Source of the DNA: Saccharomonospora cyanea NA-134
GTDB lineage: Bacteria; Actinomycetota; Actinomycetes; Mycobacteriales; Pseudonocardiaceae
DNA: 64,000 nucleotides
Assembly (NCBI RefSeq): GCF_000244975.1
Contig: NZ_CM001440.1
Location: forward strand, 4,138,325-4,202,324
Direction of reading: 5' to 3'
Positions 496-20,965 of the stretch are shown here, piece after piece. How positions within the stretch are numbered: position 1 is the first letter of the stretch; each line of letters begins with the position of its first letter. The position numbers and the translations under genes were made by a program. Below the pieces are notes generated by a model that saw only the letters and a list, made by a program, of their open reading frames with translations, did not search any database and was not told the origin of the DNA.

Positions 496-1386
496 TCACT
501 CCTCGCTTCGGGGGAACAGGGGGCTGGGCGGAGGCGTCCACCCGCAGTCGCACGACGCGCCGTCGGCCCCAGCGGCATCGGGGGGCGCGGAGACCATCGT
601 GTCGCAGGAGGGACACCGCACGTAGAGGCTGTCGCGTTCGAGTTGCCACACACTGGTGTAGGCGCCGGTGCACAGACCGCCCCGGAAGAACCTGCGCATG
701 GCACGCTGGTGCGGCCTCGCGTGCACGGCACGGACGGCGGCGAGCGAGTCGAACGCGCTGAGGGTGTACTTCCGGTCGCCGATCTCGAAGATCGCCGCGC
801 CGAGGAAGCCCTTGGTGGTGCTCAGTGATCTGACCACTTCGGTGCTGAGCAGCGTGACGTCGGCGCCCTCCTCCTCGTCCCGGACGTCGAGCCAGGTCAG
901 GGTGAACGCGGCGGGCCGGGTGGCGCGGTCGGTGCCGGAGCGGAAACTCGTGCCGTACTGCAACTCCCGGGTGGGTGGGGGCAGGAACCGGGCGCTGTGG
1001 CCGAGCGAGTCGGCGACGTCAAGACGGTCGTAGTAGCGCCGCGCGTGGACCTGCCCCGCCACGAGGGTGAGCACGTCACAACCCCGCACGCCGGTCACCG
1101 CGGCATCGCCCCCGGTGACCGGGATGCCGAGGTAGGACGCGCGCTGCGGGGCGGAGAGCGTCCACGTGATCACGGCGGTGGACCCGGCGTCGGCGACGGA
1201 CTCCACCTCCAGCGTCCACTTCGGAAACCGCAGGAACACCGTGTCGAGGTGGTGCCTCAACGCCTCGCCCGTCACCGGCTCGGGAGTGTCGGGATCGGCG
1301 AAGGACGTGACCACGGCGGCCACCTCCTCGGCACTACCGTCCCGCCACGCCGACACCCAGCTTCGCGCGGTCTCCGTGAGGTTCAT
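496..1386 (-). CDS. SnoaL-like / ABM-like fusion protein with C-terminal zinc-ribbon-like tail
   Basis: This 296-residue protein appears to have three parts. Residues about 1-130 look like a SnoaL/NTF2-like fold (TARSWVSAWRDGSAEEV opening, conserved aromatic core), a family that includes polyketide cyclases. Residues about 145-230 resemble an antibiotic-biosynthesis-monooxygenase (ABM) dimeric alpha/beta barrel (FTLTWLDVRDEEEGADVTLLSTEVVRSL). Residues about 255-285 hold a CPSC...CDC motif that could bind zinc. SnoaL and ABM proteins usually occur as separate 100-150 aa proteins, so the fusion is unusual. The ATG at 1386 overlaps the stop of the phosphopantetheinyl transferase gene (ATGA), which indicates translational coupling. 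A role as cyclase or oxygenase on the carrier-bound polyketide is inferred from the folds and the context. Confidence 0.6.
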   Translation of the reverse strand: MNLTETARSWVSAWRDGSAEEVAAVVTSFADPDTPEPVTGEALRHHLDTVFLRFPKWTLEVESVADAGSTAVITWTLSAPQRASYLGIPVTGGDAAVTGVRGCDVLTLVAGQVHARRYYDRLDVADSLGHSARFLPPPTRELQYGTSFRSGTDRATRPAAFTLTWLDVRDEEEGADVTLLSTEVVRSLSTTKGFLGAAIFEIGDRKYTLSAFDSLAAVRAVHARPHQRAMRRFFRGGLCTGAYTSVWQLERDSLYVRCPSCDTMVSAPPDAAGADGASCDCGWTPPPSPLFPRSEE

Positions 1387-1841
1387 CCGTTCCCGTCCTC
1401 GTCATTCTCGGGGCCGTCCTCGGGCAGTGGCGCGGACGCCAGCGCCACGGCGAGCGCCAACCCCGCCGCATGGCTGATCGACACCCCGACGCGCGTGCCC
1501 GGCTCCACCCGGCCACGCAGCGCCCCTCGAAGTCGCACGCCGGGCGGGTGTCCGTGCAGGCACGCCGCCGTGCGGCCGCAGAGCGGTGACGGGCGGGGAA
1601 GGATCTCCACCTCGCCGAGCCGTCCGGCGGCCGGGTCCCCGTCCACCCCCAGCAACCGCAGTACGGCGTACTTGGCGGCGAGCCGTCCCGCCCAGTGCTG
1701 GACGGTCCGGCCCCTGCTCGAACGCACGCGCTCGGCGTGGGTGAAGACCGCCTCCAGCGGCAGCGGGTCCACCAGCGCGTCCGGCGTGCTGATCCCGCCG
1801 AACGGCACGGCCGCGCTTCCCCACGGCGTCCCGTACGTCAT
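1383..1841 (-). CDS. AcpS-type 4'-phosphopantetheinyl transferase
   Basis: This 152-residue protein has the AcpS signature. It begins with FTHAERVR (FTxxE-type magnesium/CoA site), continues with HWAGRLAAKYAVLRLLG (the RxAAKxA helix), and ends with VGVSISH. It would transfer the 4'-phosphopantetheine arm of CoA to the active-site serine of the cluster's carrier protein, turning apo-ACP into holo-ACP. It is slightly longer than housekeeping AcpS (about 120-130 aa) and has a Pro/Gly/Glu-rich C-terminal tail. The ATG at 1841 overlaps the stop of the upstream transacylase gene, and its own stop overlaps the next start. A dedicated transferase inside the operon suggests that the ACP is not served efficiently by the housekeeping enzyme. 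Confidence 0.75.
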   Translation of the reverse strand: MTYGTPWGSAAVPFGGISTPDALVDPLPLEAVFTHAERVRSSRGRTVQHWAGRLAAKYAVLRLLGVDGDPAAGRLGEVEILPRPSPLCGRTAACLHGHPPGVRLRGALRGRVEPGTRVGVSISHAAGLALAVALASAPLPEDGPENDEDGNG

Positions 1842-2746
1842 GTCGCGGTCCTCCCCGCCAACGCGCGCAGCGCGGTGGGTGCCGACATGCTGACGCAGCG
1901 GACACCCTCGGTGCGCAGCATTCCCGTCAGCGCCTTACTGTCGCCCACCTCGACACACTGGTCCACGCCGGACAGTGCGCGCATGGTCGACGTCCACCGG
2001 ACCCTCCCGGTGAGCTGCCCGATCAGGGCGTCGACGATCGTGGGGAGGTCGGTGGTCGGCTCGGCGGTGACGTTGGGGATCACGGGGATCTCCGGTGGCC
2101 GCATGGGTGCCGAGCGCACCGCCTCGGCCCAGCCGTCCACCGCACCCGCCATCAACGGCGAGTGGAAGGCGTTGCTCACCTTCAGCGGCACGATCTTGCG
2201 GGCGTCGGCCGCCGCCGCCGTGAACCGTTCGATCGCCCGCGCCGAGCCCGACACCACGGTCTGGTCGGCCGTGTTCTCCAGGCCCACCACCAGGGGCTCG
2301 TCCGGCGCGGCCACCTGCGCGGCGAGCTGCTCGACCCGTTCCACCGGCAGGCCCAGCACCGAGGCCATCGCGCCGGTCTCCGCGAGCTCGGACATCAGCC
2401 GGGACCGGGCGGCCACCAGCCGGATCGTCGTGTCGACGTCCAGCACTCCCGCGGCGCACAGGGCGCTGAGCTCACCGACGCTGTGTCCCGCCACGACGTC
2501 CGGGGTGTGCCCCCGGTCCCGCAGCACCGAGAGCGCGGCGAGGTTGCACGCCGTCACGGCGGGCTGGGCGTGCGCGGTGTCCACCAGCAGAGGCAGCGGA
2601 CCCCGCGCGCACAACGGGCTGATCGGTTCCGGCAACAGCTCGTCCACCCGCCGCACCACCGCGCCGCCGACGGGGTCACGCCGCAGCCAGCCGCCCATGC
2701 CGACCCGTACGGTGCCCTGGCCGGGGAACACGAAACCGATCACCAC
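1838..2746 (-). CDS. malonyl-CoA:ACP transacylase (FabD-like)
   Basis: This 302-residue discrete acyltransferase starts with the family's FVFPGQGT motif. The nucleophile elbow GHSVGE puts the catalytic Ser at residue 89, and AFHSPLM supplies the catalytic His near residue 195. The His followed by Ser (AFHS) is the usual malonyl-specific signature, so it should load malonyl-CoA onto the cluster ACP. A dedicated transacylase is unusual for type II PKS clusters, which normally borrow FabD from primary metabolism. The stop overlaps the next start (ATGA at 1838-1841). The gene lies 16 bp downstream of the epoxide-hydrolase-like gene in the same operon. Confidence 0.88.
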   Translation of the reverse strand: MVIGFVFPGQGTVRVGMGGWLRRDPVGGAVVRRVDELLPEPISPLCARGPLPLLVDTAHAQPAVTACNLAALSVLRDRGHTPDVVAGHSVGELSALCAAGVLDVDTTIRLVAARSRLMSELAETGAMASVLGLPVERVEQLAAQVAAPDEPLVVGLENTADQTVVSGSARAIERFTAAAADARKIVPLKVSNAFHSPLMAGAVDGWAEAVRSAPMRPPEIPVIPNVTAEPTTDLPTIVDALIGQLTGRVRWTSTMRALSGVDQCVEVGDSKALTGMLRTEGVRCVSMSAPTALRALAGRTAT

Positions 2747-2762: not shown

Positions 2763-3644
2763 TCAGAGCCTGCGCCTGCGGGTCGGCATCGTCGCGGGCT
2801 TCTCGGTGCCGAGGAAGCCCGTCAGCAACTTCGTGGTCAGCTCCGGCTGGTCGAGCGGAATCCAGTGGCTGGAGTTCTCGACGCGCTCGTAGCGCCACGG
2901 GCCCTTGACGAACTTCGCCGAGCCGGTCATGCCCTCCTCCAACATGGCCTGGTCCCCCGTGGACCACACCCCCAGCGTCGGAGCGAGCACGGGCGGGAAG
3001 TTCCGTTCCACGCGCAGCTCGGCCTCGGGCGACCGGTTGGCCCGGTACCAGTTCAGCGCCGCCGTCAGCGCACCCGGCTTCGCGAGCTCCCGGGGGTAGC
3101 GCTGGTAGTCGCCCTCGGTGCCCATGATCTCCTTGAACAACCGCCAGCCGTTGCGCCGCAACAGTTGTTCGCTCACCCCGGGGAACTGGTAGAAGAGCAT
3201 GTACCAGCTCGCCCTGCGCTGCTCGATCGTCGGCGTCGAGAAGACGCCCGGGTGACCCACCGAGAACACCGCGAGGTGGTCGACCCGGCGGGGCATGAGG
3301 AACGCGTACATCCACGCGATGGCCGCGCCCCAGTCGTGCCCGACGAGGTGGGCCTTGGAGATGCCGAGGTGCTGTGTCAGACCCACGACGTCGTTGACGA
3401 TCGTGCGCATGTCGTAGGCCTCGATCTCCTGCGGCTTGCCGGACTCGCCGAACCCGCGCAGGTCGGGTGCGATGACCCGGAAACCGGCCTCCACCAGCGG
3501 ATCGATCTGGTGGCGCCACAGGTAGTGGGAGTCGGGGAAGCCGTGCAGCAGCACGACGGGGTCTCCCTCGCCCTTGTCCACGTAGGCCAGGTCCACCCCG
3601 TTGACGTGGACCGAGTCGGTGAGCAGTGTCTGTCTGGCGATCAT
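2763..3644 (-). CDS. epoxide-hydrolase-like alpha/beta hydrolase
   Basis: This 293-residue protein belongs to the alpha/beta-hydrolase group with an Asp nucleophile. HGFP (residues 34-37) forms the oxyanion-hole motif. GHDWG places the nucleophile Asp at 104, Asp231 follows strand 7, and SSHW gives His260. Tyrosines in the cap region (for example Tyr152 and Tyr200) are candidates for the pair that polarises an epoxide. Haloalkane dehalogenases share the Asp nucleophile but normally have Trp next to it and a different oxyanion motif. The ATG at 3644 overlaps the TGA of the FAD oxidoreductase gene, so the two are translationally coupled. A plausible job is opening an epoxide made on the polyketide by a cluster flavoenzyme; this is inference from context. 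Confidence 0.75.
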   Translation of the reverse strand: MIARQTLLTDSVHVNGVDLAYVDKGEGDPVVLLHGFPDSHYLWRHQIDPLVEAGFRVIAPDLRGFGESGKPQEIEAYDMRTIVNDVVGLTQHLGISKAHLVGHDWGAAIAWMYAFLMPRRVDHLAVFSVGHPGVFSTPTIEQRRASWYMLFYQFPGVSEQLLRRNGWRLFKEIMGTEGDYQRYPRELAKPGALTAALNWYRANRSPEAELRVERNFPPVLAPTLGVWSTGDQAMLEEGMTGSAKFVKGPWRYERVENSSHWIPLDQPELTTKLLTGFLGTEKPATMPTRRRRL

Positions 3645-4885
3645 GCGGTCTCCCTGAACAGGCGCTCCGCGAAGAACTCGCTGAAGCCGAACTCCGGAAC
3701 TTGCTCCGGCGGAACCATGTTGAGCAGGCCGAGCACCTGGGCTGCGGGGTTCTCGGCCATGAGCTTGCGGGCACGGCGTCGGCGTTCCGTCGCCTCGGGT
3801 CCGAACTCGCACTGCAACTTCGCGATGATCGACGCCCCGAACACCAGCCGCTTCATGCGGGCCTCGCGTTCGGTCAGGTACGGCTCGAACGCCTCGGGTG
3901 ACCAGTCGCTCTCGGACAGCAGGATGTCGCACACGACCCGGACGTCGCGCAGCGCGCAGGACAGTCCCGTGCCGAGCACCGTGTCCGCGTTGCCCGCCTC
4001 GTCACCGACGAGCACCGCGCCCTCCGCGACGATGGACTGCTCCGGCCGCAGCGTCATCGAAGGCCACACCTTGAGCGGGCCGATCGGCTTCGCGGCGGCG
4101 TAGACGGACTTGCCGCCGTCCGGCAGGGAGTCCAGCTCGAAGTCGGCGAGGAAGCGTTCCACTCCCCCGGCGCCGCGGTACCGGTGCTTGTTGTGCGTGG
4201 GGAAGTTGATGTACAGCCGGGCCCGGCCGTCGCCCTGGGGGAAGACCATGAAGTTCTTCTCGCCCTCGGTGCCCATCGCCTGGACGTCCATCGGCCAGTC
4301 GTCGAGCCCCTCGACCCGCACACCACCGCCCCAGTGGTGCACGGCCGTCCTCATCGAGACACCGATCTGCCTGCCCACCCTGCCGCCACGACCGGTCGCC
4401 CCGATGATCATCCGCGCGCGGACCTCGTGGGGCTCGCCGTCGAGCTGGTAGCGCACGGAGGGCTCCCGGCCCGCCGTCACCTCACAGCGCTGCGCGCCCA
4501 TCACGACCTTCGCCCCCGAGTCGGCCGCCTGCTCGGCCATCGCCTCGCACACCGTGTGATGCGGGAATCCCAGCGGGCCGCCGACACCGGGTACGAAGTG
4601 CGTCATGTCGACGGTCTCCGCCTCGTCCGGAGCCACCACCTCGTCCCACTGGGTCCACTCGCGGATCTCCCAGCCACCACCGAACGCGATGGCCTCGTCC
4701 ACACCGAGTCGCTGTGCCTCCTGCATGCCCCACGGCGCGAACCACTCGCCGCGGACGATGTCGGTGTAGGACTCCTGTTTTTCGAGCAACACCACCGACA
4801 GTCCGTTCGCGCTCAGGTAGGCGGCGGCCGCCGTACCCGCCATGCCGCCACCCACGATGACGACGTCGGTGTCTTCCACACTCAT
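3641..4885 (-). CDS. FAD-dependent oxidoreductase of the PHBH/halogenase-like fold
   Basis: This 414-residue flavoprotein opens with a Rossmann FAD motif, VVIVGGGMAGTAAAAYL, and keeps a second FAD-contact motif, AVLVGDEAGNADTVLGTGL (the GD box of group A flavoprotein monooxygenases), near residue 300. No WxWxIP motif of flavin-dependent tryptophan halogenases is visible, so halogenation is not supported. The sequence RGEWFAPWGMQEAQRLG after the first domain resembles FAD monooxygenases and reductases such as geranylgeranyl-reductase relatives. It could epoxidise or hydroxylate the product, or reduce double bonds. The ATG at 4885 overlaps the TGA of the nitroreductase gene upstream, and its own stop overlaps the epoxide-hydrolase-like gene. 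That arrangement suggests consecutive tailoring steps. Confidence 0.7.
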   Translation of the reverse strand: MSVEDTDVVIVGGGMAGTAAAAYLSANGLSVVLLEKQESYTDIVRGEWFAPWGMQEAQRLGVDEAIAFGGGWEIREWTQWDEVVAPDEAETVDMTHFVPGVGGPLGFPHHTVCEAMAEQAADSGAKVVMGAQRCEVTAGREPSVRYQLDGEPHEVRARMIIGATGRGGRVGRQIGVSMRTAVHHWGGGVRVEGLDDWPMDVQAMGTEGEKNFMVFPQGDGRARLYINFPTHNKHRYRGAGGVERFLADFELDSLPDGGKSVYAAAKPIGPLKVWPSMTLRPEQSIVAEGAVLVGDEAGNADTVLGTGLSCALRDVRVVCDILLSESDWSPEAFEPYLTEREARMKRLVFGASIIAKLQCEFGPEATERRRRARKLMAENPAAQVLGLLNMVPPEQVPEFGFSEFFAERLFRETA

Positions 4886-5607
4886 GCCTGCCACCTCTCC
4901 CAACTCGTGCGCGACTTCGCCGGATACCGCTTGGCGGGAGCGAAGTCGGTGCCGACCGTGTACGCCACGGGCACCATGCACACCTGTGTCACCCCGGCCG
5001 GGATGCCGAGCAGCTCGCCGACGCGCCGCTCGAACGGAAGGTGCATGCACGTGATCGTGCTGCCCAGTCCTCGGCTACGGAGCGCGAGCTGGAACGACCA
5101 GACGGCGGGGAAGATCGAGCCGTAGAAGATGCTGGCCCGCATGGCACCGATGCGGACGTCGTCGCGGGCCGTCGCCGCGTCGTCGGCCCGCGACCGCAGC
5201 CACTCGGTGTCGATCGCGCCGATGTCCGGTGGCCTGCCCAGCACGCACGGGACGACGAGTACCGGCACCCTCGCGATGTCGCGGGCCAGCTGTGCGGCCG
5301 AGTCGTTGTTGCGCTGCGCCTGACGGCTGTTGCGTCGCCGCCCCGACGCGGTCCAGACCTCCTTCTGGTGGAAGCGCCACGAGATGTCGAACAGCTCCGC
5401 GAGCTGTTCCTTCACCGACGTCTCGGTGATGACGACCCAGCGCCAGTTCTGCTGGTTGTTGGCCGTGGGCGCCTGCACGGCGACCTCCAGCGCCTCCTCG
5501 ATCACCTCCCGGGGCACGGGCCGCTCGAAGTCCAGCCTGCGCCGCACCGAACGCGTGGTGGTGAGCAGGCGGTCGGTTTCGAGCACGTCGAAAGGTGCCG
5601 ACGTCAT
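4882..5607 (-). CDS. nitroreductase-family FMN oxidoreductase
   Basis: This 241-residue protein has the nitroreductase-fold hallmarks. TTRSVRRRLDF near the N-terminus and AVQAPTANNQQNWRWVVI form the FMN-binding region. A C-terminal GLGSTITCMH segment and a PAGVTQVCMVPVAY strand complete the fold. Family members dimerise around FMN and use NAD(P)H; in biosynthetic clusters they act as dehydrogenases, enoyl reductases or oxidative aromatising enzymes. The ATG start at 5607 overlaps the stop of the fused ketosynthase gene (ATGA), so the two are probably translated together. No separate enoyl reductase is present in the cluster, so this enzyme or the neighbouring flavoenzyme is a candidate for double-bond reduction. 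That role is inferred only. Confidence 0.8.
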   Translation of the reverse strand: MTSAPFDVLETDRLLTTTRSVRRRLDFERPVPREVIEEALEVAVQAPTANNQQNWRWVVITETSVKEQLAELFDISWRFHQKEVWTASGRRRNSRQAQRNNDSAAQLARDIARVPVLVVPCVLGRPPDIGAIDTEWLRSRADDAATARDDVRIGAMRASIFYGSIFPAVWSFQLALRSRGLGSTITCMHLPFERRVGELLGIPAGVTQVCMVPVAYTVGTDFAPAKRYPAKSRTSWERWQA

Positions 5608-7868
5608 ACCGCCCCCAGCAGTGTCACGCCGCGCACGGACCCCGGTGCGGAACTGAGCACCAGCGCGGTCCGCACACTCGCGACCGCGTCGGGTTTCGTG
5701 AGGTAGTCGCCGAGCGTTCCGACGCGAGGACTCGCCAGGTCCACGAGTGCGGGTGCGACGCCGTCGCGCACCGCCAGCGCCCCCAGGGCGAGGTTCAGGG
5801 CCCCGGTCGCCGAACGCAGGTCACCTGTCAGTCCCGCCGACGCGGTGAGCGGTCCACCCGGTGCGGCGGAGAGGACGGCGCGGGCCTCCGAGGCGTCGTC
5901 CTCGCCGCCCAAGGCGGACCCGACCACGAGGTCGGCGCCCTCGCCCGCCACGGCGGCGATGCCGCGCTCGACGAGTGTCGCCTCGTCATCACCGACCACC
6001 GAGGTGTGGGACGAGCCCAGCACCCTGGCGTACGGGGTGGCGCCGCGCGCGGCCGCGTGCTCGGCCGACTCCACCACCAGACACACCGCACCGGACGCCG
6101 TCGCCACGGCGGCGGAGTCCGCGTCGTACGGGGTCACCGTGGTTGGGGCGGACGCACCCTCCACCGCCTCGTCCGCGGCCACCACCAGCACCACCTCGGC
6201 CTTGCCGCAGCGGATGGCCTCCATCGCGCAGTCCAGGGCGATCGAAGCCGACGCGTTGCCGTTGCAGATCGTGGTCGTGACACCGCGCAGCCCCAGGGTC
6301 TGGCACACCGCGCCGCCGGTCGCGTTCAGCACCACGTTGGAGAAACTCAGCACAGCCGGCTTGTTCGGGTTGGCCAGCACGCTCTCGTCGAACCCCAGGG
6401 TGCTCTCCACCGACCCCGCGGCGGTGGCGAAGACGACGCCGACGTTCTCCAGCGCCGACCTGCCGAGCTTCAACCGCGCGTCCTCCCACGCCAGCCGCGA
6501 GGCGGCGATCGCCATGCGCGACAGGTGGTTCATGTGCCGCCACAGTGAGCGCGGCGCGAACGTCCGGCCGTCCAGCACGGGTTCGGCGCCGACGGCGGTG
6601 CGGCCCTCGGCGAGTGCCCGCGCGAGCTGGTCGACCCCCGTGCCGAGACCGAGCACGGGCCCGATTCCGGTGATCACGGCTTCCTTGGCCGGCAGTTCGG
6701 TGTACTCGCGCTCCGGTTCCGGTTTGCGCAGCACGAGCGAGGCGTTGTTGCCGCCGAACGCGTAGTTGTTGGACACGACGACGTCCATCGGCAGCGCTCG
6801 CGACGTGTTGGGCACGAAGTCCAACGTCGCCGAGGCGACGGCCTCGTCGGTGAACCCGATGGTGGGTGGCGCGGCCCCGTGCCGGAGCGCGAGCACGCTC
6901 GCCACCGCCTCCACCGCTCCCGCCGCACCGAGGGTGTGGCCGATGAAGGACTTGATGCTGCTGGTCGGCACCGCCCCCGCACGCTCGCCGAAGACGGTGC
7001 GCATGACCTTCTTCTCCATCGCGTCGTTGGCCGGCGTTCCCGTGCCGTGTCCGTTGACGTAGTCGACGTCGTCGGTGGTCAGTCCCGCGTCGGCCAACGC
7101 CCGCCGCACCGCGCTGACCCCGCCGCGTCCCGTGGGGTCGGGGGCGGTGGCGTGGTAGGCGTCGGCGGACAGCCCGTATCCCGCCACCTCGGCGAGCGGC
7201 TCGGCGCCGCGCGCGAGTGCCCGGTCGAGTGGCTCCACCACCAGGAACGCCGCACCCTCACCCAGGTTCAGCCCGTCGGAACGGCTGTAGGGCGCGCACG
7301 GCCGTGAGCTGAGCGCCTGAAGCCCCGCGAAACCCGCGTACGTGCCGAACAGCAGCGGGTCCACGCCACCGGCCAGCACGACGTCGGCCTCACCGGTGAG
7401 GATCTTGTCCTTCGCCAGGCCGACGGCGTTGCCTCCCGCCGCGCACGCCGTGGACACCAGGATGCGGGGGCCACCCGCACCGAGGCGCCTTCCCACCGTG
7501 TCGGCGGTGGCGTGCATCGGTTGGTAGGCCCCCACTCCGTCGGGCGTGGCCTGGCACTTGCCCAGCACCAACCCGAACCGTTCGGCGGGAACCTCGTCGA
7601 GGCGCGCGTGTGCCACGGCCTGGCGCGCCGCGGCCAGTGCCAGCCGGGCTGTCCGGTCGAGACGGTGGTCCGCCTCGGGCAACTGCCCGTCGATCCACTC
7701 GTCCGGCACCTGGCCCGCGAAGCGGGCCTCGAACGCGGAGAACCGCTCGTCGCGCACGGCGGTGATGCCGGACTCGCCCGCCATGAGCCGCCGCCAGAAC
7801 TCGTCCGCGTCACGGCCCACCGCACAGATCACCCCGACCCCGGTGATGACGACAGGGCGCAGCACCAT
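5604..7868 (-). CDS. fused ketosynthase-chain length factor (two FabF-type domains in one chain)
   Basis: This 754-residue protein contains two tandem FabF-like domains. Domain 1 (about 1-400) has a complete ketosynthase active site: Cys142 in VSTACAAGG, His274 in NGHGTGTPAND, Lys306 and His311 in SIKSFIGHTLGAAGA, and the C-terminal NNYAFGGNNAS loop. Domain 2 (about 410-754) restarts with AVITGIGPVLGLG and keeps a Cys535 region (TTTICNGNAS). Its NGHGT motif is not recognisable, and the region equivalent to KSxxGH reads SAGLTGDLRSATGA, with no His. It is therefore probably a catalytically dead partner, as chain length factors are in type II PKS systems, where KS and CLF are normally separate proteins. 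It would catalyse iterative decarboxylative condensation of malonyl-ACP on the cluster ACP. The ATG at 7868 lies 27 bp downstream of the GcvT-like gene. Confidence 0.88.
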   Translation of the reverse strand: MVLRPVVITGVGVICAVGRDADEFWRRLMAGESGITAVRDERFSAFEARFAGQVPDEWIDGQLPEADHRLDRTARLALAAARQAVAHARLDEVPAERFGLVLGKCQATPDGVGAYQPMHATADTVGRRLGAGGPRILVSTACAAGGNAVGLAKDKILTGEADVVLAGGVDPLLFGTYAGFAGLQALSSRPCAPYSRSDGLNLGEGAAFLVVEPLDRALARGAEPLAEVAGYGLSADAYHATAPDPTGRGGVSAVRRALADAGLTTDDVDYVNGHGTGTPANDAMEKKVMRTVFGERAGAVPTSSIKSFIGHTLGAAGAVEAVASVLALRHGAAPPTIGFTDEAVASATLDFVPNTSRALPMDVVVSNNYAFGGNNASLVLRKPEPEREYTELPAKEAVITGIGPVLGLGTGVDQLARALAEGRTAVGAEPVLDGRTFAPRSLWRHMNHLSRMAIAASRLAWEDARLKLGRSALENVGVVFATAAGSVESTLGFDESVLANPNKPAVLSFSNVVLNATGGAVCQTLGLRGVTTTICNGNASASIALDCAMEAIRCGKAEVVLVVAADEAVEGASAPTTVTPYDADSAAVATASGAVCLVVESAEHAAARGATPYARVLGSSHTSVVGDDEATLVERGIAAVAGEGADLVVGSALGGEDDASEARAVLSAAPGGPLTASAGLTGDLRSATGALNLALGALAVRDGVAPALVDLASPRVGTLGDYLTKPDAVASVRTALVLSSAPGSVRGVTLLGAV

Positions 7869-7895: not shown

Positions 7896-8975
7896 TCAGA
7901 TGATCGGGGTGCTCCAGCTCTTCGGCGTGATGTACGGGCTCGTCAGCGTGGTCACCTCGGCGTCACCGACCGACAGCGTCAGCCCCGCCGCGGCCAGCTC
8001 GGGAGCGACCCTGGCCAGCCCGAGGGTGGTGCCGAGCGCGATGCTGCGGGCTGCGTGGACGACTTCGCCGACCTGCTCTCCGTCGACCGTCACCGGCGTA
8101 CCGGGCTCGGGCACCGAGTCCCCGCCGGAGAAGCCGATCGTGCGCCGCTTGGCGGGCGCGTTGAACGCGGCCAGCACCGCGTCCCTGCCGAGGAATTCCT
8201 CCTTGGTGATGTCCACGAGCCAGTTCGCGCCCATCTCGATGATGTCCGCGCCGGTCGCCTCGTGGCGCACGACGGGCTGACGCACCTCGAGCATCGCGAG
8301 CTCCAGAGCCTCGTACCCGGCGGGCAGGGCCTGCTCGACGGCTTTGCTCCACAGCTTCTCCACCGAGGTGGCCGAGGCGATGACCTTGTAGCCGTACTCG
8401 GCCGTCGACCCGGTGCGCGCGAAGACGATGTCCTCGCCGTCCCACGTCGTGTCGACCACGGACTCGAACGGCAGCGCCGCCAACTCGCCGTCGATGAGTC
8501 TGCCGACCACGCCCCACGCGTAAGGGCCTTCCAGCGCGAGCACGACCAGCTCGCCGGTGCGGTCGGTGATCGTCACATCGTCGCCCGCCTGCGCCCGCAG
8601 GTGTTCCAGCAGGAGTGCACCGTTACCGACCGAGCTCTCCAGCAGCAGCCCGTCCTCCCGGCCCCACACCACGACCTCGTCCACGACGGAACCCTCGGCG
8701 TCGAGCACGAGGCTCGTCATGCAACGCTCGGCCGTCAGGTACTCGACGTCCCGCGCGAGCACCCGCTGCGCGTACTCCACCGCACCGTCGCCCGTGATCT
8801 CGATCAACCGCGCGCCGGAGAGGTCGAACACGGCGGCGCGGTTGCGGATCGCGTCGTACTCCTGCTCCAGAGTCGAGTAACGCAGGGTCGCGGTGGCCTC
8901 ACCGACGGTGCCGTACACCGTGCCTTCCGGATGCGCCGAACGCAGCGGCGAGGTCAGGGTTGGCGTGTCATTCAC
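7896..8975 (-). CDS. GcvT-like (glycine-cleavage T-protein / aminomethyltransferase family) protein
   Basis: This 359-residue protein matches the folate-binding GcvT fold over its full length. It has an N-terminal segment AVFDLSGARLIEITGDGAVEYAQRVLARDV, the folate-site region SLVLDAEGSVVDEVVVW with acidic residues where T-proteins hold the catalytic Asp, and RTGSTAEYGYKV. The family C-terminal barrel (GRDAVLAAF and SIALGTTLGLARV) follows. Known relatives transfer or accept one-carbon units with tetrahydrofolate (GcvT, dimethylglycine dehydrogenase domains, DmdA demethylase). No other glycine-cleavage genes are nearby, and the gene sits between the dehydratase (6 bp gap) and the fused ketosynthase (27 bp). 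A cluster-specific one-carbon transfer to or from the polyketide, or an O-demethylation, is plausible but unproven. Confidence 0.8.
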   Translation of the reverse strand: MNDTPTLTSPLRSAHPEGTVYGTVGEATATLRYSTLEQEYDAIRNRAAVFDLSGARLIEITGDGAVEYAQRVLARDVEYLTAERCMTSLVLDAEGSVVDEVVVWGREDGLLLESSVGNGALLLEHLRAQAGDDVTITDRTGELVVLALEGPYAWGVVGRLIDGELAALPFESVVDTTWDGEDIVFARTGSTAEYGYKVIASATSVEKLWSKAVEQALPAGYEALELAMLEVRQPVVRHEATGADIIEMGANWLVDITKEEFLGRDAVLAAFNAPAKRRTIGFSGGDSVPEPGTPVTVDGEQVGEVVHAARSIALGTTLGLARVAPELAAAGLTLSVGDAEVTTLTSPYITPKSWSTPII

Positions 8976-8981
8976 GGGTTT

Positions 8982-9461
8982 TCAGACCTTTCCGTTCGAA
9001 CTGGTAGCGGCCGGGTCGGCGATCGTGATCGATCCTTCGGCGACGACGGCGCCGTCCACCCTGGCGTTGACCTTGTACTCGCAGAAGCCGCGGCCACCCG
9101 CGGTGCGTTCCGAAGTCAGCAGCAGCGAGTCCCCCGGCCTCACCGGACGCCGGAACCTCATCGAACGCACCCCGGCCAGGTAACCGATGGGACCCGCCCC
9201 AGCGAGCGCGAAGACCACTCCGGACAGTTGTGCCAGCGCCTCGGCGACCAGCACGCCGGGGAACACGGCGTCGGCCGGGAAGTGCCCCTGGAACCACGGC
9301 TCCGTGGCGGTGACGTTCTTGGTTCCGACTCCCCTGACACCGGGTTCGACCCGCTCGACCCGGTCGAGCAGGAGCATCGGCCACCGGTGCGGCAGGATCT
9401 GTCGAATGCGGTCGTTGTCCAGGCCCGTCAGGGTGGCGGTCGGCTCGCTCGTGGTCGTCAT
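8982..9461 (-). CDS. FabZ-like 3-hydroxyacyl-ACP dehydratase
   Basis: This 159-residue hot-dog-fold protein carries the FabZ active site. His60 lies in FQGHFPADAVFPGV and Glu74 in LVAEALAQLSG, after the typical opening ILPHRWPMLLLDRV. It would dehydrate 3-hydroxyacyl-ACP to trans-2-enoyl-ACP after each ketoreduction. With the ketoreductase, it makes the pathway a reducing (polyene or fatty-acid-like) one rather than a classical aromatic poly-beta-ketone pathway. The ATG at 9461 overlaps the TGA of the ACP gene. Longer in-frame extensions upstream run through the ACP gene and are not used. Confidence 0.9.
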   Translation of the reverse strand: MTTTSEPTATLTGLDNDRIRQILPHRWPMLLLDRVERVEPGVRGVGTKNVTATEPWFQGHFPADAVFPGVLVAEALAQLSGVVFALAGAGPIGYLAGVRSMRFRRPVRPGDSLLLTSERTAGGRGFCEYKVNARVDGAVVAEGSITIADPAATSSNGKV

Positions 9462-9772
9462 GCCGCGCGCTCGCCCGCCCCGGGTTCCGTCTTCGGCAGG
9501 TCGGGGTTGACGTACTCGGCCAACCGCGAGACCGAACCGAACACGGACATGTCGCTGTCGTAGAGCGCCACGCCGAACTCGGCCTCGATGGCGACGTAGA
9601 GTTCGAGCACGTCGAGGCTGTCGAGTTCGAGGCCCCTGCCGAACAGCGGCTGGTCGTCGGTGATCCACTCCGGTTCGATCGGCAGGTCGAGCCGCGACAC
9701 GATCATTTTCTTGATCTGGGCGCAGGTCTGCTGTCGTGCGGCTGCGGCGGCACGGAGTTCGTCGATGGTCAC
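9458..9772 (-). CDS. acyl carrier protein
   Basis: This 104-residue acidic protein has the carrier-protein motif LELDSLDVLEL, with Ser52 as the likely phosphopantetheine attachment site, followed by the helix EAEFGVALYD. It has extra residues at both ends compared with typical 80-residue ACPs, including a C-terminal Pro/Glu/Ala tail. It would carry the growing chain between the fused ketosynthase, ketoreductase and dehydratase. The phosphopantetheinyl transferase at 1383-1841 is the obvious activating partner. Its stop overlaps the dehydratase start (ATGA). Confidence 0.92.
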   Translation of the reverse strand: MTIDELRAAAAARQQTCAQIKKMIVSRLDLPIEPEWITDDQPLFGRGLELDSLDVLELYVAIEAEFGVALYDSDMSVFGSVSRLAEYVNPDLPKTEPGAGERAA

Positions 9773-9795: not shown

Positions 9796-10542
9796 TCAGC
9801 CGAGACCGCCGCCGTTGGCGACGAACGTCTCGCTGGTGATGTAGGAAGCCCGATCCGAGGCCAAAAAGGTCACCAGGTGGGCGATCTCCTCGGGCCGGCC
9901 CATCCGGCCGAGCCGGATACGCGAGGCGTAGTTCTCCCGCAGCTTCGTGGGAATCATCCTGGTCATATCGGTCTCGACGAAGCCGGGGGCGACCACGTTG
10001 ACCCGCACCCCGTAGGGCGCGGCCTCGTACGACAACGCCTTGCTGAACGCGATGATCGCGCCCTTGGAGGCGACGTAGTTGGTCTGGCCGGGGAAACCGC
10101 CGTCGAGCCCGCTGGCCGAGCTGAGGGTCACGATGGAACCACGGCGCTGGTGCTGCATGATGCGCAGTGCCTCACGGCACGCGAAGAACGTGCCCTTCAT
10201 GTTGATGCCCATCGTCTCGTCGAACAGGTCACTGCTCATCGCCACGAGGTGCTTGTCGCGGGTGACTCCCGCACTGGTCACGAGGACGTCGAGCCTGCCG
10301 TGCTCCGAGCGCAACGACCGGAACATCTCGCGGACGGCGCCCTCGTCGGTGACGTCGGCCCGGATGGTCGACGCCGACCCCCCGTTCGACTCGATCCGTG
10401 CGACCAGTTCCTTGGCCGCCTCCTCCGAACGGGAGTAGTTGATCACCACGTGGTTCCCGTTGGCGGCGAGGTCGAGCGCCACCGCCCGACCGATTCCACG
10501 GGACCCACCGGTGACCAGAGCGACCGAGCCTGCTGCGAACAT
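9796..10542 (-). CDS. FabG-like 3-oxoacyl-ACP reductase
   Basis: This classical short-chain dehydrogenase of 248 residues from ATG 10542 is the first gene of the leftward PKS operon. It has the TGGSRGIG cofactor motif, NAG-type TSAGVTRD, a catalytic Ser in SSASG, and YVASK with Tyr and Lys. RADVTD and an Arg-rich cofactor region suggest NADPH preference. It should reduce the beta-keto group of ACP-bound intermediates. A GTG at 10554 could extend the protein by four residues, but GGAG lies 6 bp upstream of the ATG, so the ATG is preferred. The promoter region upstream carries three 11-bp-spaced repeats that look like SARP sites. Confidence 0.88.
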   Translation of the reverse strand: MFAAGSVALVTGGSRGIGRAVALDLAANGNHVVINYSRSEEAAKELVARIESNGGSASTIRADVTDEGAVREMFRSLRSEHGRLDVLVTSAGVTRDKHLVAMSSDLFDETMGINMKGTFFACREALRIMQHQRRGSIVTLSSASGLDGGFPGQTNYVASKGAIIAFSKALSYEAAPYGVRVNVVAPGFVETDMTRMIPTKLRENYASRIRLGRMGRPEEIAHLVTFLASDRASYITSETFVANGGGLG

Positions 10543-10601
10543 CCGCGACTCCACAAGGGTTTCCGGCGCTTGTCGGACTGCGCCCGTCGGCGTGCCGGCC
10601 C

Positions 10602-10687: not shown

Positions 10688-12310
10688 ATGGCTGACCTCG
10701 AGGTGGACGTCCTCATCGTCGGCGGAGGGCCCGTCGGCCTCACCGCGTCACTGGAGTGTTCCCGGCACGGACTGACCTCGTTGCTGGTCGAACGGCACGA
10801 GAGCACGTCGATCTTTCCCAAGGCACGGCTCGTGTCCACCCGCACGATGGAGCTGGTCCGCGCGTGGGGGCTGCAGGACGAGGTGGAGCGCCTCGGGTTG
10901 CCCAGGGAGGAGAGCCTCGCCGTCGGCGTGGGCAGTTCGCTGACCGCGCCGGACTTCCATCGCGAGGTCGCTCCCATCGTGGAGGACGCGCCGCAGAGCC
11001 CGACCTACACCTACATCTGCGCGCAGGACAAGTTCGAGGTCGTCCTCAAACGCACGGCCGAGTCGATGCCCGGCGCGGACGTCCGGTTCGCCACCACGAT
11101 GACGTCTCTGACGCAGGACTCCGACGGGGTGTCCGCCGTGGTCGAGTCGGCGGCAGGCACGTTCACGGTCCGCGCCGCCTACGCGGTGGCCGCCGACGGA
11201 GCACGCAGCGGTGTCCGGCAGCGGCTCGGCATCGGGGTGGAGGGCCCGCCCCCGCTCGGACACATGATCAGCATCATGTTCGACGCCGACCTCGTTCCCC
11301 TGCTGCACGACCGGATGTGCGCGCTGTACTTCCTCAGAAGCACCATCCCGTGCGCCGTCGAAGCCGTCGACAACCAACGCCGCTGGATCGTCCAGACCGG
11401 GTACGACCCCGAGGAGGGCGGCAGCGCGGCGGACTTCACGCCGGAGTTCTGCGTTCACCTGGTGCGGGAGGCGGTCGGGGTGCCCGACCTGGACGTGGAG
11501 CTGGTGGGCATCATGCCGTGGCTCCAACAGGCCGTGACGGCCGAGCGGTTCCGTGACGGGCGGATCTTCCTCGCGGGCGACGCGGCGCACGTGTCCACCC
11601 CGCAGGGCGGGTTCGGCATGAACTGCGGCATCCAGGACGCGCACAACCTCGTGTGGAAGCTCGCCGCCGTGCTGAAGGGGCTCGCGGGCGAGGGACTGCT
11701 CGACACCTACTCCGCCGAACGGCATCCCGTCGGACAGCGCACGGTCGCCGAGAGCCTCGACAACGCGTTGATCACCTTCCGCATGATGGAGGGTGAGCTG
11801 ACGATGAAGGAGGCCATCGCACTACAGGCGGGCAGGAGACGCAGTGAGGGTCTGGTGCTCGGGTTCCACTACGAGTCGGCCGCGGTGGTTCCGGACGGCA
11901 CCCGGCCGCCCGAACCGGACGATCCCTACCGCACCTACGTCGCGACGGCCCGGCCCGGCCACCGCGCCCCGCACGTCGTGGTGAGTCGCAACGGCACGAA
12001 CATGTCCACTCTGGACTTGATGGGCACGGGTTTCACCCTGTTCACCCCTGACGGGAGCGGCTGGGCGAAGGCGGCGGAGGAGGCCGGCACCCGCACCGGC
12101 GTGCACGTCGTGCCCATCGAGGTCTCCCCGAGGGCGGGCGGAAACGTCGCCGTCACCGCACCACGGTGGGCCGAGGTCTACGGAGTGAGCCCGACGGGAG
12201 CGGTGCTGGTCCGGCCGGACGGTCACGTGGCCTGGCGGGTCGCCGACGGCACGGCGAGCGCGGAGGTCCTCGTGGAGGTCCTGGACACCGTCCTCACGCG
12301 GACACCGTAG
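10688..12310 (+). CDS. FAD-dependent aromatic-hydroxylase-type monooxygenase
   Basis: This 540-residue group A flavoprotein monooxygenase resembles polyketide hydroxylases such as PgaE and RdmE. The FAD Rossmann motif is VDVLIVGGGPVGLTASLE, the DG motif is AVAADGARSGVRQRLG, and the GD motif is IFLAGDAAHVSTPQGGFGMN. A C-terminal thioredoxin-like domain (about 430-540) completes the usual layout. It would insert one oxygen from O2 with NAD(P)H. Family members act on aromatic polyketides, which fits awkwardly with a reducing PKS; the substrate may be a cyclised aromatic or a polyene. It is transcribed rightward, divergent from the PKS operon, and its 3' end overlaps the convergent SARP gene by 17 bp. 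The Shine-Dalgarno is weak. Confidence 0.88.
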   Translation: MADLEVDVLIVGGGPVGLTASLECSRHGLTSLLVERHESTSIFPKARLVSTRTMELVRAWGLQDEVERLGLPREESLAVGVGSSLTAPDFHREVAPIVEDAPQSPTYTYICAQDKFEVVLKRTAESMPGADVRFATTMTSLTQDSDGVSAVVESAAGTFTVRAAYAVAADGARSGVRQRLGIGVEGPPPLGHMISIMFDADLVPLLHDRMCALYFLRSTIPCAVEAVDNQRRWIVQTGYDPEEGGSAADFTPEFCVHLVREAVGVPDLDVELVGIMPWLQQAVTAERFRDGRIFLAGDAAHVSTPQGGFGMNCGIQDAHNLVWKLAAVLKGLAGEGLLDTYSAERHPVGQRTVAESLDNALITFRMMEGELTMKEAIALQAGRRRSEGLVLGFHYESAAVVPDGTRPPEPDDPYRTYVATARPGHRAPHVVVSRNGTNMSTLDLMGTGFTLFTPDGSGWAKAAEEAGTRTGVHVVPIEVSPRAGGNVAVTAPRWAEVYGVSPTGAVLVRPDGHVAWRVADGTASAEVLVEVLDTVLTRTP

Positions 12311-13787
12311 GGGACTGCACGCGGAGTACCGGAGGCGCGGGCGAGTTCAGCCCCGCCGCGGCACGCCGGAGCAGCACCGGGTTCCCACCTGCCATGCCCG
12401 CGATGCGCACAGCGTCCCGCGACTGCCGGTCGACCCAGTCCTCACCCAACAGCAGGGCGAGCAACTCGCGTGACTCTCCCGGCGGCAGCGGGCCGAGCAC
12501 GCTGCGCCGTGCTCCCTGCCGCACGACCAGGTCGCTCAGCGGATCGCGGCTGGTGACGAGCACCCGGCAGTCGGAGCATCCCGGTAGCAGCGGCAACACC
12601 TGGGCCACGTCGACGGCGTCGTCGAGCACCACGAGAAGCCTCTTGCGGGCGACCGTGCTGCGGTAGAGGGCGACCTTCTCGGCGAGGTCGCCCGGCACGG
12701 ACTGCGGTGCCACGCCCAGTGCGTGCAGGAAACGGTCGAGGACCGCGGACGTGGGCACCGGCCTCCCACTCGGGTCGCGCAGATCGGCGAACAACTGGCC
12801 GTGCGGGAACCGCTCCGCCCGCTGGTGTGCCCACCGCAGCGCGAGAGCCGTCTTGCCCACGTCGCCCGGCCCGCACAACACCATCGTGCCGGGGGCGTCC
12901 GGGTGGTCGGCGAGTGCCTCGTCGAGAGCCCGCAGCTCCTGTCCCCGGCCCGCGAAGGGCACCGGTTGCCTCGGCAGTTGCGAGGGAATGGTGGACGCCG
13001 GCGCGACAGGAAGGGACAGTGGCACGGGGGAAGGCGACAGCGCGGGAGCGTCCCGCAGGATGCGCTCGTGAAGTTCCCGCAGCTCGGGGCCGGGTTCGAG
13101 CCCGATCTGCTCCACCAGGACACGGCGGGCGTCCTGGTAGGTCCGCAACGCCTCCGCCCGCCGTCCCGAGCGGTACTGGGCGAGCATGAGCTGCGCCCTC
13201 GCGCGTTCCCGCAGTGGCTGCTCCGCCACCACGGCGGACAACTCGGCGACGATACGGTCGTGCCTGCCGAGCTGGAGTTCGAGCTCCGCACACGTCTCCA
13301 CGGCGTCGAGGCGGGCCTCGTGGAGCCGGTGCGCTTCGACACGCATGCCCGGCAGGTTCTCGAACGGCATACCCCGCCACAGGCCCAGCGCCTCGCGTAG
13401 CAGTGCCACGGCGGCAAGCCGGTCGCCCGCGGCGGCCTTCGCCGCGGCGCGCGCGGTCAGTGACCCGAACCGGAGCCAGTCCGCCGCGTTCTCCTCCAGC
13501 CGGATGAGATAGCCGGGGCTCGCGGTGCCGATGGCCTTGTCCAGTCCCACGACGCTGAGCGCGCGGCGCAGCCGGGACACGCAGATGGCCACCTGGCTGC
13601 GCGCGCTGGCGGGAGGCTCGCCACCCCAGACGGCACCGATGAGCCGGTCGACGCTGACCACCCGGTTCGCATCCAGTACGAGACTGGCCAGAACGGCCCG
13701 TTCGCGGGCCCCTCCGACCCGGATCTCCCGCTCCGCCCGCATGACGCGGACGGGGCCCATGATCTGGATCTGCACCGGGCCGACCAT
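12294..13787 (-). CDS. SARP-family transcriptional activator with NB-ARC ATPase domain
   Basis: This 497-residue regulator has an OmpR-type winged-helix DNA-binding domain (about 1-95), beginning IQIMGPVRVMRAEREI. A bacterial transcriptional activation domain (about 100-245) follows. The NB-ARC ATPase module has Walker A GPGDVGKTALAL and Walker B RLLVVLDDAV. It stops soon after the NB-ARC core and lacks the long TPR region of full AfsR proteins. The ATG at 13787 shares its A with the TGA of the glycosyltransferase gene, so the two are translationally coupled. As a cluster-situated activator it probably recognises the 11-bp-period repeats upstream of the ketoreductase and perhaps of the glycosyltransferase. 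Its 3' end overlaps the convergent monooxygenase gene. Confidence 0.88.
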   Translation of the reverse strand: MVGPVQIQIMGPVRVMRAEREIRVGGARERAVLASLVLDANRVVSVDRLIGAVWGGEPPASARSQVAICVSRLRRALSVVGLDKAIGTASPGYLIRLEENAADWLRFGSLTARAAAKAAAGDRLAAVALLREALGLWRGMPFENLPGMRVEAHRLHEARLDAVETCAELELQLGRHDRIVAELSAVVAEQPLRERARAQLMLAQYRSGRRAEALRTYQDARRVLVEQIGLEPGPELRELHERILRDAPALSPSPVPLSLPVAPASTIPSQLPRQPVPFAGRGQELRALDEALADHPDAPGTMVLCGPGDVGKTALALRWAHQRAERFPHGQLFADLRDPSGRPVPTSAVLDRFLHALGVAPQSVPGDLAEKVALYRSTVARKRLLVVLDDAVDVAQVLPLLPGCSDCRVLVTSRDPLSDLVVRQGARRSVLGPLPPGESRELLALLLGEDWVDRQSRDAVRIAGMAGGNPVLLRRAAAGLNSPAPPVLRVQSPTVSA

Positions 13788-15004: not shown

Positions 15005-15041
15005 GTCGGCTCCCACCGGGGATCGGACTCGGCGGCACGGG

Positions 15042-15115: not shown

Positions 15116-15255
15116 ACCCCTACCCGCTCCCCTATCCCCCACGGAGGTGTCCGATACGCGGAACGGAGCAGTGGCGCCGCCCCTGGCAGGGCCGGTCCGC
15201 CCTCCTCACCCGCCGGATTAGGGGTTACCCCTATGGCCTCGCCCGTACCTATGCT
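15116..15255 (+). promoter_or_regulatory. putative LAL-regulator site and promoter of the aminotransferase
   Basis: A perfect inverted repeat, TAGGGG-TTA-CCCCTA, sits at 15219-15233. The TANNNT hexamer TATGCT follows at 15250-15255, and the aminotransferase ATG is at 15296. The palindrome would overlap the -35 position, which suits an activator. Two further CCCCTA half-sites lie at 15117-15122 and 15129-15134. Similar half-sites occur at 18709-18732 and, as GGGGGTTATAA, upstream of the LAL regulator at 23663-23673. Binding by the LAL regulator is inferred from this shared distribution. Confidence 0.45.
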
Positions 15256-15295
15256 GGCGGCAAACCGCGCGAGCCGAAGGGCGACAGGGACGACG

Positions 15296-17107: not shown

Positions 17108-17140
17108 CGTCGGGGCTGTCAGGGAGCTGTCGGCGGCCGG

Positions 17141-18577: not shown

Positions 18578-18708
18578 CGAGCGACTCCTTCGGCAGGACT
18601 GGCGTTTCCGCGATGCCGGTGATCGACCGTGGTGGGCCCCGCGGCCGACACAGCCGCCGGCACCGGCAAGCTTCGTCGCGCGCGTTTCCGGTGGTCAACC
18701 ACAGCCCT

Positions 18709-18732
18709 ACCCCTAATTCCCGGAATAGGGGT
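18709..18732. promoter_or_regulatory. imperfect inverted repeat with ACCCCT/AGGGGT arms
   Basis: ACCCCT and AGGGGT bracket ATTCC and GGAAT in a 24-bp near-palindrome with one inserted base. It overlaps the stop codon of the 4-ketoreductase gene and lies 132 bp upstream of the 2,3-dehydratase start. Its outer arms match the perfect TAGGGG palindrome at 15219-15233, so it may be a regulator site for the dehydratase gene. A short terminator is the alternative, but no T-tract follows. Confidence 0.35.
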
Positions 18733-20931: not shown

Positions 20932-20965
20932 GGACGTTCTCCGTTTCGTGGTTCGCGAACAGGAC

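What the first reader, a model, noticed from the sequence alone, without database searches (positions are those of the whole stretch)
5604..7868. Single-chain ketosynthase-chain length factor at the core of a reducing PKS cluster
Two FabF domains are fused in one 754-residue protein. Only the first keeps Cys142/His274/His311; the second has lost the active-site histidines. In type II PKS systems KSalpha and the chain length factor are separate proteins, so a covalent version would fix a 1:1 pairing. It sits with discrete KR, DH, ACP, transacylase and AcpS genes, which points to an iterative, reducing assembly line that may be undescribed.
Basis: partly seen in the sequence, partly recalled or inferred. 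Interest (0 to 1): 0.82.

Follow-up and report, generated by a model that had tools for sequence, protein, structure and literature searches.

The report
Fused ketosynthase pair in polyketide cluster
A soil-type bacterium carries one protein that fuses a working chain-building enzyme to a catalytically empty twin, inside a gene cluster shared by many actinobacteria that probably makes a sugar-decorated polyene-type natural product; similar fusions turn out to be a wider, little-noticed branch of a known enzyme class.

Summary
The 754-aa protein is real, on the minus strand (7868 to 5604). Domain 1 is a complete FabF-type ketosynthase (C142, H274, K306, H311 invariant in 29 of 29 proteins); domain 2 has lost that set but is under purifying selection. 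AlphaFold2 gives one two-lobed particle (pTM 0.90) whose top PDB fold match is 6riw, the covalent KS-CLF of the PUFA synthase PfaC, so a covalent KS-CLF is not new in itself. One of two trees places domains 1 and 2 with the KS and CLF of an unfused, ishigamide-like pair; the other does not.

The order KR-ACP-DH-GcvT-KS/CLF recurs on a Priestia plasmid. That GcvT-fold neighbour has lost the T-protein catalytic Asp. I found no paper describing a fused KS-CLF in a type II PKS, but only open-access papers were searchable. Product, chain length and GcvT role are unknown. New variant of a known kind.

The parts
5604..7868 (-). Fused KS-KSbeta (CLF-like) protein, 754 aa
   Evidence: AlphaFold2 model pTM 0.90; top fold hit 6riw PfaC KS-CLF
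6720..7868 (-). Domain 1 (residues 1-383): catalytic ketosynthase, C142/H274/K306/H311
   Evidence: 29 of 29 invariant; median dN/dS 0.22 over 28 comparisons
6681..6725 (-). Linker, about 15 residues (382-396), between the last strand of domain 1 and the first of domain 2 in the model
   Evidence: DSSP of the model; alignment
5607..6692 (-). Domain 2 (residues 393-754): KSbeta/CLF-like, catalytic set replaced (N, S, A, D)
   Evidence: median dN/dS 0.40 overall and 0.20 for residues 440-567
7896..8975 (-). GcvT-fold (T-protein-like) protein
   Evidence: Pfam GCV_T 118.7 bits; model pLDDT 92.9, top fold hit 1yx2 TM 0.90; T-protein catalytic Asp replaced; 28 of 28 relatives
8982..9470 (-). FabZ-type dehydratase (start approximate)
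   Evidence: NCBIfam FabZ 139.2 bits, cut-off 113; 28 of 28 relatives
9458..9772 (-). Acyl carrier protein
   Evidence: Pfam PP-binding 38.4 bits; 28 of 28
9796..10554 (-). FabG-type ketoreductase
   Evidence: NCBIfam 3oxo_ACP_reduc 273.7 bits, cut-off 297.75; FabG subfamily NF009466 233.9 bits, cut-off 222; 28 of 28
4882..5607 (-). Nitroreductase-family flavoenzyme
   Evidence: Pfam 70.6 bits; 28 of 28
3641..4885 (-). FAD-dependent oxidoreductase (start approximate)
   Evidence: Pfam FAD_binding_3 76.7 bits; 27 of 28
2763..3641 (-). Alpha/beta hydrolase with an HDWG motif, epoxide-hydrolase-like (start approximate; reading of the motif recalled)
   Evidence: Pfam Abhydrolase_1 113.7 bits; 27 of 28
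1838..2746 (-). Malonyl-CoA:ACP transacylase-like
   Evidence: Pfam Acyl_transf_1 124.5 bits; NCBIfam fabD 216.9 bits, cut-off 260.9; 27 of 28
1383..1841 (-). Possible AcpS-like phosphopantetheinyl transferase
   Evidence: Weak: NCBIfam 21.7 bits, cut-off 124; 27 of 28
496..1386 (-). SnoaL-like protein
   Evidence: Pfam SnoaL_2 33.7 bits; 27 of 28
10688..12310 (+). Aromatic-hydroxylase-type FAD monooxygenase
   Evidence: NCBIfam RdmE 469.7 bits, below cut-off 700; 28 of 28
12294..13730 (-). SARP regulator
   Evidence: Pfam BTAD 148.9 bits; 28 of 28
13787..15016 (-). Macrolide-family glycosyltransferase
   Evidence: NCBIfam MGT 393.1 bits, above cut-off 260; 22 of 28
15233..16405 (+). DegT-family sugar aminotransferase
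   Evidence: Pfam 377.3 bits; 22 of 28
16454..17107 (+). SAM methyltransferase
   Evidence: Pfam Methyltransf_25 76.3 bits; 0 of 28 within the flanks held
17141..18577 (-). NDP-hexose 2,3-dehydratase
   Evidence: Pfam 530.1 bits; 11 of 28
18713..19723 (-). NAD-dependent epimerase/ketoreductase family
   Evidence: Pfam Epimerase 128.7 bits; 0 of 28 within the flanks held
19687..21024 (-). Sugar C-methyltransferase family
   Evidence: Pfam Methyltransf_14 191.6 bits; 10 of 28
20966..23620 (-). LuxR-type large regulator
   Evidence: Pfam GerE 47.1 and AAA_16 52.9 bits; 0 of 28 within the flanks held

Best explanation
The protein is a single-chain KS-CLF of a reducing, iterative type II polyketide synthase. 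Shown by sequence and model: domain 1 is a complete ketosynthase; domain 2 is a conserved KSbeta without the catalytic set; the chain is predicted to fold as one intramolecular thiolase-type pair like PfaC KS-CLF. Inferred: AT loads malonyl onto the ACP; domain 1 condenses; KR and FabZ-type DH reduce and dehydrate each beta-ketone without enoyl reduction, giving a polyenoyl-ACP whose length domain 2 helps set; the fusion guarantees pairing. The GcvT-fold neighbour acts as a dedicated accessory of this synthase, probably on ACP-bound intermediates and not as a glycine-cleavage aminomethyltransferase (least certain step). FAD, nitroreductase, hydrolase and SnoaL-type enzymes then tailor the chain and an amino-deoxysugar is attached.
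For: Catalytic residues invariant in 29 of 29, absent from domain 2. AlphaFold2 pTM 0.90. Foldseek top hit 6riw at TMq 0.77 over 916 columns, while single FabF chains reach about 0.46. In the FabF-rooted careful tree, 25 fused KSbeta domains plus the CLF of an unfused pair form one clade (99/100) and 27 fused KS domains plus the KS of that pair another (98/94); that CLF's best PDB match is 6kxd_B, 113 bits, which I identify as ishigamide Iga12 from recall. KR, ACP, DH, GcvT and KS-KS are present in 28 of 28 relatives and in the same order on Priestia pBM500, whose GcvT-like protein matches my profile at 269 bits. Purifying selection on both domains. T-protein catalytic Asp replaced in the GcvT-like protein.
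Against: No product, chain length or activity is known. The grouping with the reducing pair holds only in the second tree, made after I dropped four long-branch rows; in the first, quick tree that pair's CLF sat at the midpoint root beside another long row and its KS lay with the unfused KSs. Only one such pair was sampled and its CLF branch is very long (2.01). By sequence profile, domain 2 matches KSs as well as CLFs: 9s5h_B 82, 9s5h_C 76, FabFs about 75, 6kxd_A 63, 1tqy_B 48 bits, and 6kxd_B is not among the 51 hits at E<=1e-10. Domain 1 scores higher against FabF (up to 281 bits) than against 6kxd_A (234.5). In the distant fused protein of L064, domain 2 keeps a cysteine and one histidine. 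No thioesterase, cyclase or starter ligase is clearly identified. Absence of an enoyl reductase rests on family scans, and the KR also hits the FabL enoyl-reductase model below its cut-off (188 against 328).
Confidence: 0.7

Rival explanations
1. Domain 2 is not a chain-length factor but a cyclisation factor, as in AmcF-AmcG of cispentacin and coronafacic acid: one condensation followed by ring closure.
For: The KS domain matches the NCBIfam cispentacin AmcF model at 261 bits, and a distant fused relative (L064) exceeds that model's cut-off (346 against 325). AmcG is likewise a motif-poor KS partner (PMC10698177 sections 7 and 9 read).
Against: The window protein is below the AmcF cut-off (261 against 325) and scores higher on FabF (402.6 over two stretches). 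The DH matches FabZ (139 bits, above cut-off 113) much better than AmcE (59.5, cut-off 140). No AMP-binding family hit, as expected of an AmcH-like ligase, among the 20 proteins scanned against Pfam. A KR is present.
Confidence: 0.12
2. The set is a dedicated fatty-acid-type synthase making an acyl side chain, and the tailoring enzymes act on another scaffold.
For: The core parts are FAS-like. In Lachnospira a fused KS-KS sits with FabZ, AT, an ACC subunit and PlsX.
Against: No enoyl reductase or KSIII recognised among the scanned cluster genes; no other scaffold-forming gene recognised among those scanned.
Confidence: 0.1
3. Domain 2 is a decaying duplicate without function.
For: It is less conserved than domain 1 (mean majority fraction 0.77 against 0.87).
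Against: dN/dS median 0.40 over 28 comparisons, and 0.20 for its core, as low as domain 1; retained in 28 of 28 relatives and in fused proteins of Bacillota.
Confidence: 0.02

Closest known systems
PfaC KS-CLF didomain of PUFA synthase (PDB 6riw; Santin et al. 2020 seen only as cited in PMC12895367)
   Same: Catalytic KS covalently joined to a CLF; same two-lobed fold
   Different: 19% identity in the fold alignment; PfaC belongs to a multidomain PUFA synthase (PMC12895367 passages), whereas here the KS-CLF is a free-standing protein beside discrete partners
Highly reducing type II PKS (ishigamide Iga11-Iga12, PDB 6kxd; names recalled)
   Same: KS plus KSbeta, discrete KR, FabZ-like DH and ACP; grouping in one of two trees with an unfused pair whose CLF best matches 6kxd_B
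   Different: KS and CLF are separate chains there (6kxd chains A and B); no GcvT-like partner that I recall
Cispentacin/coronafacic acid AmcF-AmcG (PMC10698177)
   Same: FabF-like KS with a motif-poor partner outside classical aromatic PKS
   Different: Separate proteins, starter ligase AmcH, decarboxylating hot-dog AmcE; family cut-offs not met here
Glycine cleavage T-protein (GcvT)
   Same: Fold of the neighbour gene: TM 0.90 to 1yx2 and 1woo
   Different: Catalytic Asp (Asp96 in 1woo) is E in the window and Q in the 28 close relatives; Tyr83 and the GARD motif are not kept in the window protein
PDB 9s5h (two-chain '3-oxoacyl-ACP synthase', system not identified by me)
   Same: Best sequence match in the PDB for both domain 1 (309 bits) and domain 2 (82 bits)
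   Different: Chains B and C are separate; I do not know its biology

Membership tests
Highly reducing type II PKS | KSalpha with Cys-His-His | tested here: met
   29 of 29
Highly reducing type II PKS | KSbeta partner lacking the catalytic set | tested here: met
   N, S, A, D at the aligned positions; domain conserved
Highly reducing type II PKS | Discrete KR, FabZ-like DH and ACP, no enoyl reductase | tested here: met
   absence of ER judged from family scans only
Highly reducing type II PKS | KS and CLF as separate polypeptides | tested here: not met
   One frame in 29 of 29; hence 'variant', not plain member
Highly reducing type II PKS | Phylogenetic grouping with reducing KS and CLF | tested here: inconclusive
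   Clades 98/94 and 99/100 include the one unfused reducing pair sampled, but the quick tree with the dropped rows did not show this
Highly reducing type II PKS | Polyene product | not testable with these tools
   No chemistry available
PUFA synthase KS-CLF (PfaC) | Covalent KS-CLF fold | tested here: met
   6riw top hit, TMq 0.77
PUFA synthase KS-CLF (PfaC) | Part of a multidomain PUFA synthase | tested here: not met
   The protein ends after the KSbeta domain; partners are discrete
Cispentacin-type AmcF-AmcG | AmcF and AmcE family cut-offs | tested here: not met
   261 against 325 bits and 59.5 against 140 bits
Cispentacin-type AmcF-AmcG | AmcH-like 2-oxoglutaryl-ACP ligase | tested here: not met
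   No AMP-binding hit among the 20 proteins scanned against Pfam; the ABC genes and outer flanks were not scanned
GcvT aminomethyltransferase (neighbour gene) | Catalytic aspartate | tested here: not met
   Second Asp of the IIDD motif is E, Q, A or I in 37 of 37 aligned proteins; its catalytic role is recalled, supported by PDB titles of D97N and D552A mutants

The most novel reading that the evidence does not exclude
Single-chain KS-CLFs with an adjacent GcvT-fold protein form a distinct, phylum-crossing subclass of type II polyketide synthases. The GcvT-fold protein, stripped of its T-protein active site, is a previously unrecognised core component that acts on the ACP-bound chain (for example isomerising, cyclising or gating it).
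Probability: 0.35. Interest if true: 0.75.

Novelty: new variant of a known kind. Interest (0 to 1): 0.55.

Why it matters
One published catalogue of type II PKS clusters required a KS and a CLF gene within 2 kb of each other (PMC10132072, passages seen); a search of that kind could miss fused proteins. A single-chain KS-CLF is also a convenient object: stoichiometry is fixed, and chain-length control could be tested by mutating one gene. The recurring GcvT-fold partner is a candidate new component of reducing type II synthases, testable with a small plasmid-borne cassette from Priestia megaterium.

Tried and rejected
Considered and set aside: a cispentacin/coronafacic-type cyclising pair (family cut-offs not met); a decaying second domain (dN/dS); a fusion unique to this cluster (28 relatives plus distant fusions). 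I tried to name the product through literature; the ten paper searches (not all aimed at the product) listed no cluster that I recognised as this one. A structural second look (pdb_via) was not available. I looked for unfused domain-2 relatives: the weaker hits lie in open frames of 372-494 aa (not examined further, except the own-genome pair) or in other long frames; no clear unfused sister of domain 2 was seen. GcvT is not universal for fusions: 10 of 18 fetched actinobacterial loci, and three of four plasmid regions read (Lachnospira, a Streptomyces plasmid, Pseudalkalibacillus) show no GcvT-like gene beside the KS-KS gene.

Rows dropped: from the second tree I removed four long-branch rows (L005_own0, L005_own1, Phwa_d2, L086_d2) and added E. 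coli FabF; the grouping of the fused domains with the unfused reducing pair appears only there and not in the first tree. L065 and L089 were in neither tree because my gene caller did not return their KS-KS gene. The 28 close relatives plus the window were represented in the trees by 7 of 29 proteins.
Full report
Observation. Pfam finds ketoacyl-synthase N- and C-terminal domains (two stretches of PF00109, one of PF02801). Cys142, His274 and His311 are numbered correctly. In an alignment of the window protein with 28 relatives, Cys142, His274, Lys306 and His311 are invariant in 29 of 29. The aligned positions of domain 2 read N, S, A, D.

Surroundings. Read on the minus strand, the operon runs KR, ACP, FabZ-type DH, GcvT-like protein, KS-KS, nitroreductase, FAD oxidoreductase, alpha/beta hydrolase, malonyl transacylase, a weak AcpS-like gene and a SnoaL-like protein. 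On the plus strand lies a RdmE-like FAD monooxygenase; beyond it are a SARP regulator, a glycosyltransferase and deoxysugar genes including a 2,3-dehydratase, a DegT aminotransferase, a C-methyltransferase and an epimerase-family gene. Left of the window, in the same genome, are an alpha/beta hydrolase split between two frames, a second weak ACPS-like gene, a beta-helix protein and three genes that I read as ABC transporter genes. From the translations printed the cluster appears to sit between housekeeping genes (ATP synthase on the left; prfA-like and threonine/homoserine genes on the right); these names are my reading, not family scans.

Relatives. A scan of genome contigs returned 28 loci, each with a match over nearly the whole query, and all 28 are single unbroken frames. 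By tblastn, KR, ACP, DH, GcvT, KS-KS, nitroreductase, FAD monooxygenase and SARP were found in 28 of 28. Transacylase, hydrolase, FAD oxidoreductase, SnoaL-like and AcpS-like genes were found in 27 of 28 (the miss is the short contig L022). The beta-helix gene and two of the ABC genes were found in 26 of 28 (misses: the short contigs L022 and L038), the third ABC gene in 25. Glycosyltransferase and DegT were found in 22 of 28, the 2,3-dehydratase in 11, the C-methyltransferase in 10 (flanks were at most 10 kb, so absences of outer genes are not proof). In genome samples, own genome included, the full fused protein occurs in 6 of 394 genomes of the class (E<=1e-200) and 13 of 200 of the family (E<=1e-120).

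More distant fusions. A domain-2 profile search and a search with the L064 protein (25 of 249 genomes of that genome's family, itself included, E<=1e-100) led me to fetch 18 loci, a choice from those hits. In 8 of 18 (L064, L087-L092, L097) a GcvT-like gene adjoins the KS-KS gene, with KR, ACP and DH nearby; in six of these eight a protein of 675-733 aa lies between DH and GcvT (a GNAT domain was seen in the two that I scanned, L087 and L090). In 10 of 18 (L065-L069, L086, L093-L096) there is no GcvT, and 9 of these 10 have separate KS-type genes as well (in L065 and L089 the KS-KS gene is seen by tblastn, not by my gene caller). On plasmids, tblastn found 20 records at E<=1e-60, each match covering 70-73% of the query, 7 of them from Bacillota. 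In the four regions read, a profile search finds KS-type matches in both halves of the protein. Priestia megaterium pBM500 has KR-ACP-FabZ-GcvT-KS-KS in the window's order; the other three show no GcvT-like gene (the plasmid gene tables are incomplete). In six fused proteins compared, domain 1 has the full catalytic set in 6 of 6 and domain 2 lacks the full set in 6 of 6, though in L064 it keeps a cysteine and one histidine.

Structure. AlphaFold2 on the 29-row alignment gave pTM 0.90 and mean pLDDT 82.5, with low confidence at residues 181-198, 238-242 and 492-511. Foldseek's best PDB match is 6riw, the PfaC KS-CLF, aligned over 916 columns with TMq 0.77 (rmsd 7.1, 19% identity); single FabF chains reach about 0.46. 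Both lobes therefore superpose together on a known covalent KS-CLF, though the high rmsd warns against reading detail.

Evolution. In a FabF-rooted maximum-likelihood tree of 67 domains, all 25 fused KSbeta domains plus the CLF of an unfused pair in the same genome form a clade (99/100), and all 27 fused KS domains plus that pair's KS form another (98/94). The unfused CLF's best PDB match is 6kxd_B (113 bits). This needs two cautions. First, four long-branch rows were dropped for this tree; in the earlier quick tree of 70 rows the 27 fused KS domains were a clade on their own (SH-aLRT 98), the unfused reducing pair was not with the fused domains, and the fused KSbeta domains were not one clade. 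Second, in the careful tree the fused KS domains alone formed a clade in 17% of bootstraps and the fused KSbeta domains alone in 0%. So the number of fusions or fissions, and the exact tie to reducing KS-CLFs, are open. By profile scores domain 2 matches solved KSs as well as solved CLFs. Both domains are under purifying selection (median dN/dS 0.22 and 0.40; 0.20 for residues 440-567; 28 comparisons, simple counting method).

GcvT-like protein. It has the T-protein fold (model pLDDT 92.9, TM 0.90 to 1yx2 and 1woo). Counting along the 1woo alignment, the second Asp of IIDD is Asp96, which I recall as catalytic; entries 3a8k (D97N) and 3gsi (D552A) fit that. In 37 of 37 aligned proteins this position is not Asp: E in the window, Q in the 28 close relatives, E in L064 and L097, A in L087-L089, I in L090-L092. 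The RTG.T.EYGY motif is kept (R187, G189, T191 and E193-Y196 invariant). I infer a non-canonical role tied to the synthase, because the gene is its neighbour in two phyla.

Mechanism. The most likely scheme is iterative condensation by domain 1, length control by domain 2, and keto-reduction and dehydration by KR and DH, giving a polyenoyl-ACP that is tailored and glycosylated. The sequence, the conservation and the modelled fold are shown; the chemistry is inferred. The sugar is probably an amino-, perhaps C-methyl-branched, deoxyhexose (from the family names; sugar logic recalled).

Literature. Searches for fused KS-CLF wording listed five papers, by their titles four on PUFA synthases or their producers and one review of carrier proteins (passages seen of one, PMC12895367). 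Three papers on type II PKS or KS classification were searched for 'fused' and related words (passages only: PMC10132072, PMC12664062, PMC9582728); the passages did not mention a fused KS-CLF in type II systems. Papers on cinnamoyl and related clusters speak of KS-CLF pairs (passages of PMC9381841 and PMC13311259). The cispentacin paper (PMC10698177: outline, find passages, sections 7 and 9) describes separate proteins. Only open-access papers were searchable, so absence from print is not established.

Verdict. The GcvT-fold partner is the more surprising part.

Noticed in passing
window 1-489 and L009 left edge (about -285 to 489): The alpha/beta hydrolase at the left window edge is split between two frames in this genome, whereas 27 of 27 relatives that hold both halves have it in one frame; a mutation or an assembly error.
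   Followed up: partly
L009:18184-19230 (left of the window): A right-handed beta-helix protein is found in 26 of 28 relatives; its role in the pathway is unexplained.
   Followed up: no
L070:12866-17948 (same genome): A separate, unfused KS/CLF cluster with ACP and what I read as a hot-dog protein; its CLF best matches 6kxd_B.
   Followed up: partly
   Followed up: no
L103 (Lachnospira eligens megaplasmid): A fused KS-KS with ACP, KR, FabZ, transacylase and an acetyl-CoA carboxylase subunit in a Clostridia species.
   Followed up: no
window 16454-23620: The methyltransferase, epimerase-family and LuxR regulator genes at the sugar end have no match within the flanks held for any of the 28 relatives, which may reflect swapping of sugar modules or only the limited flanks.
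   Followed up: no
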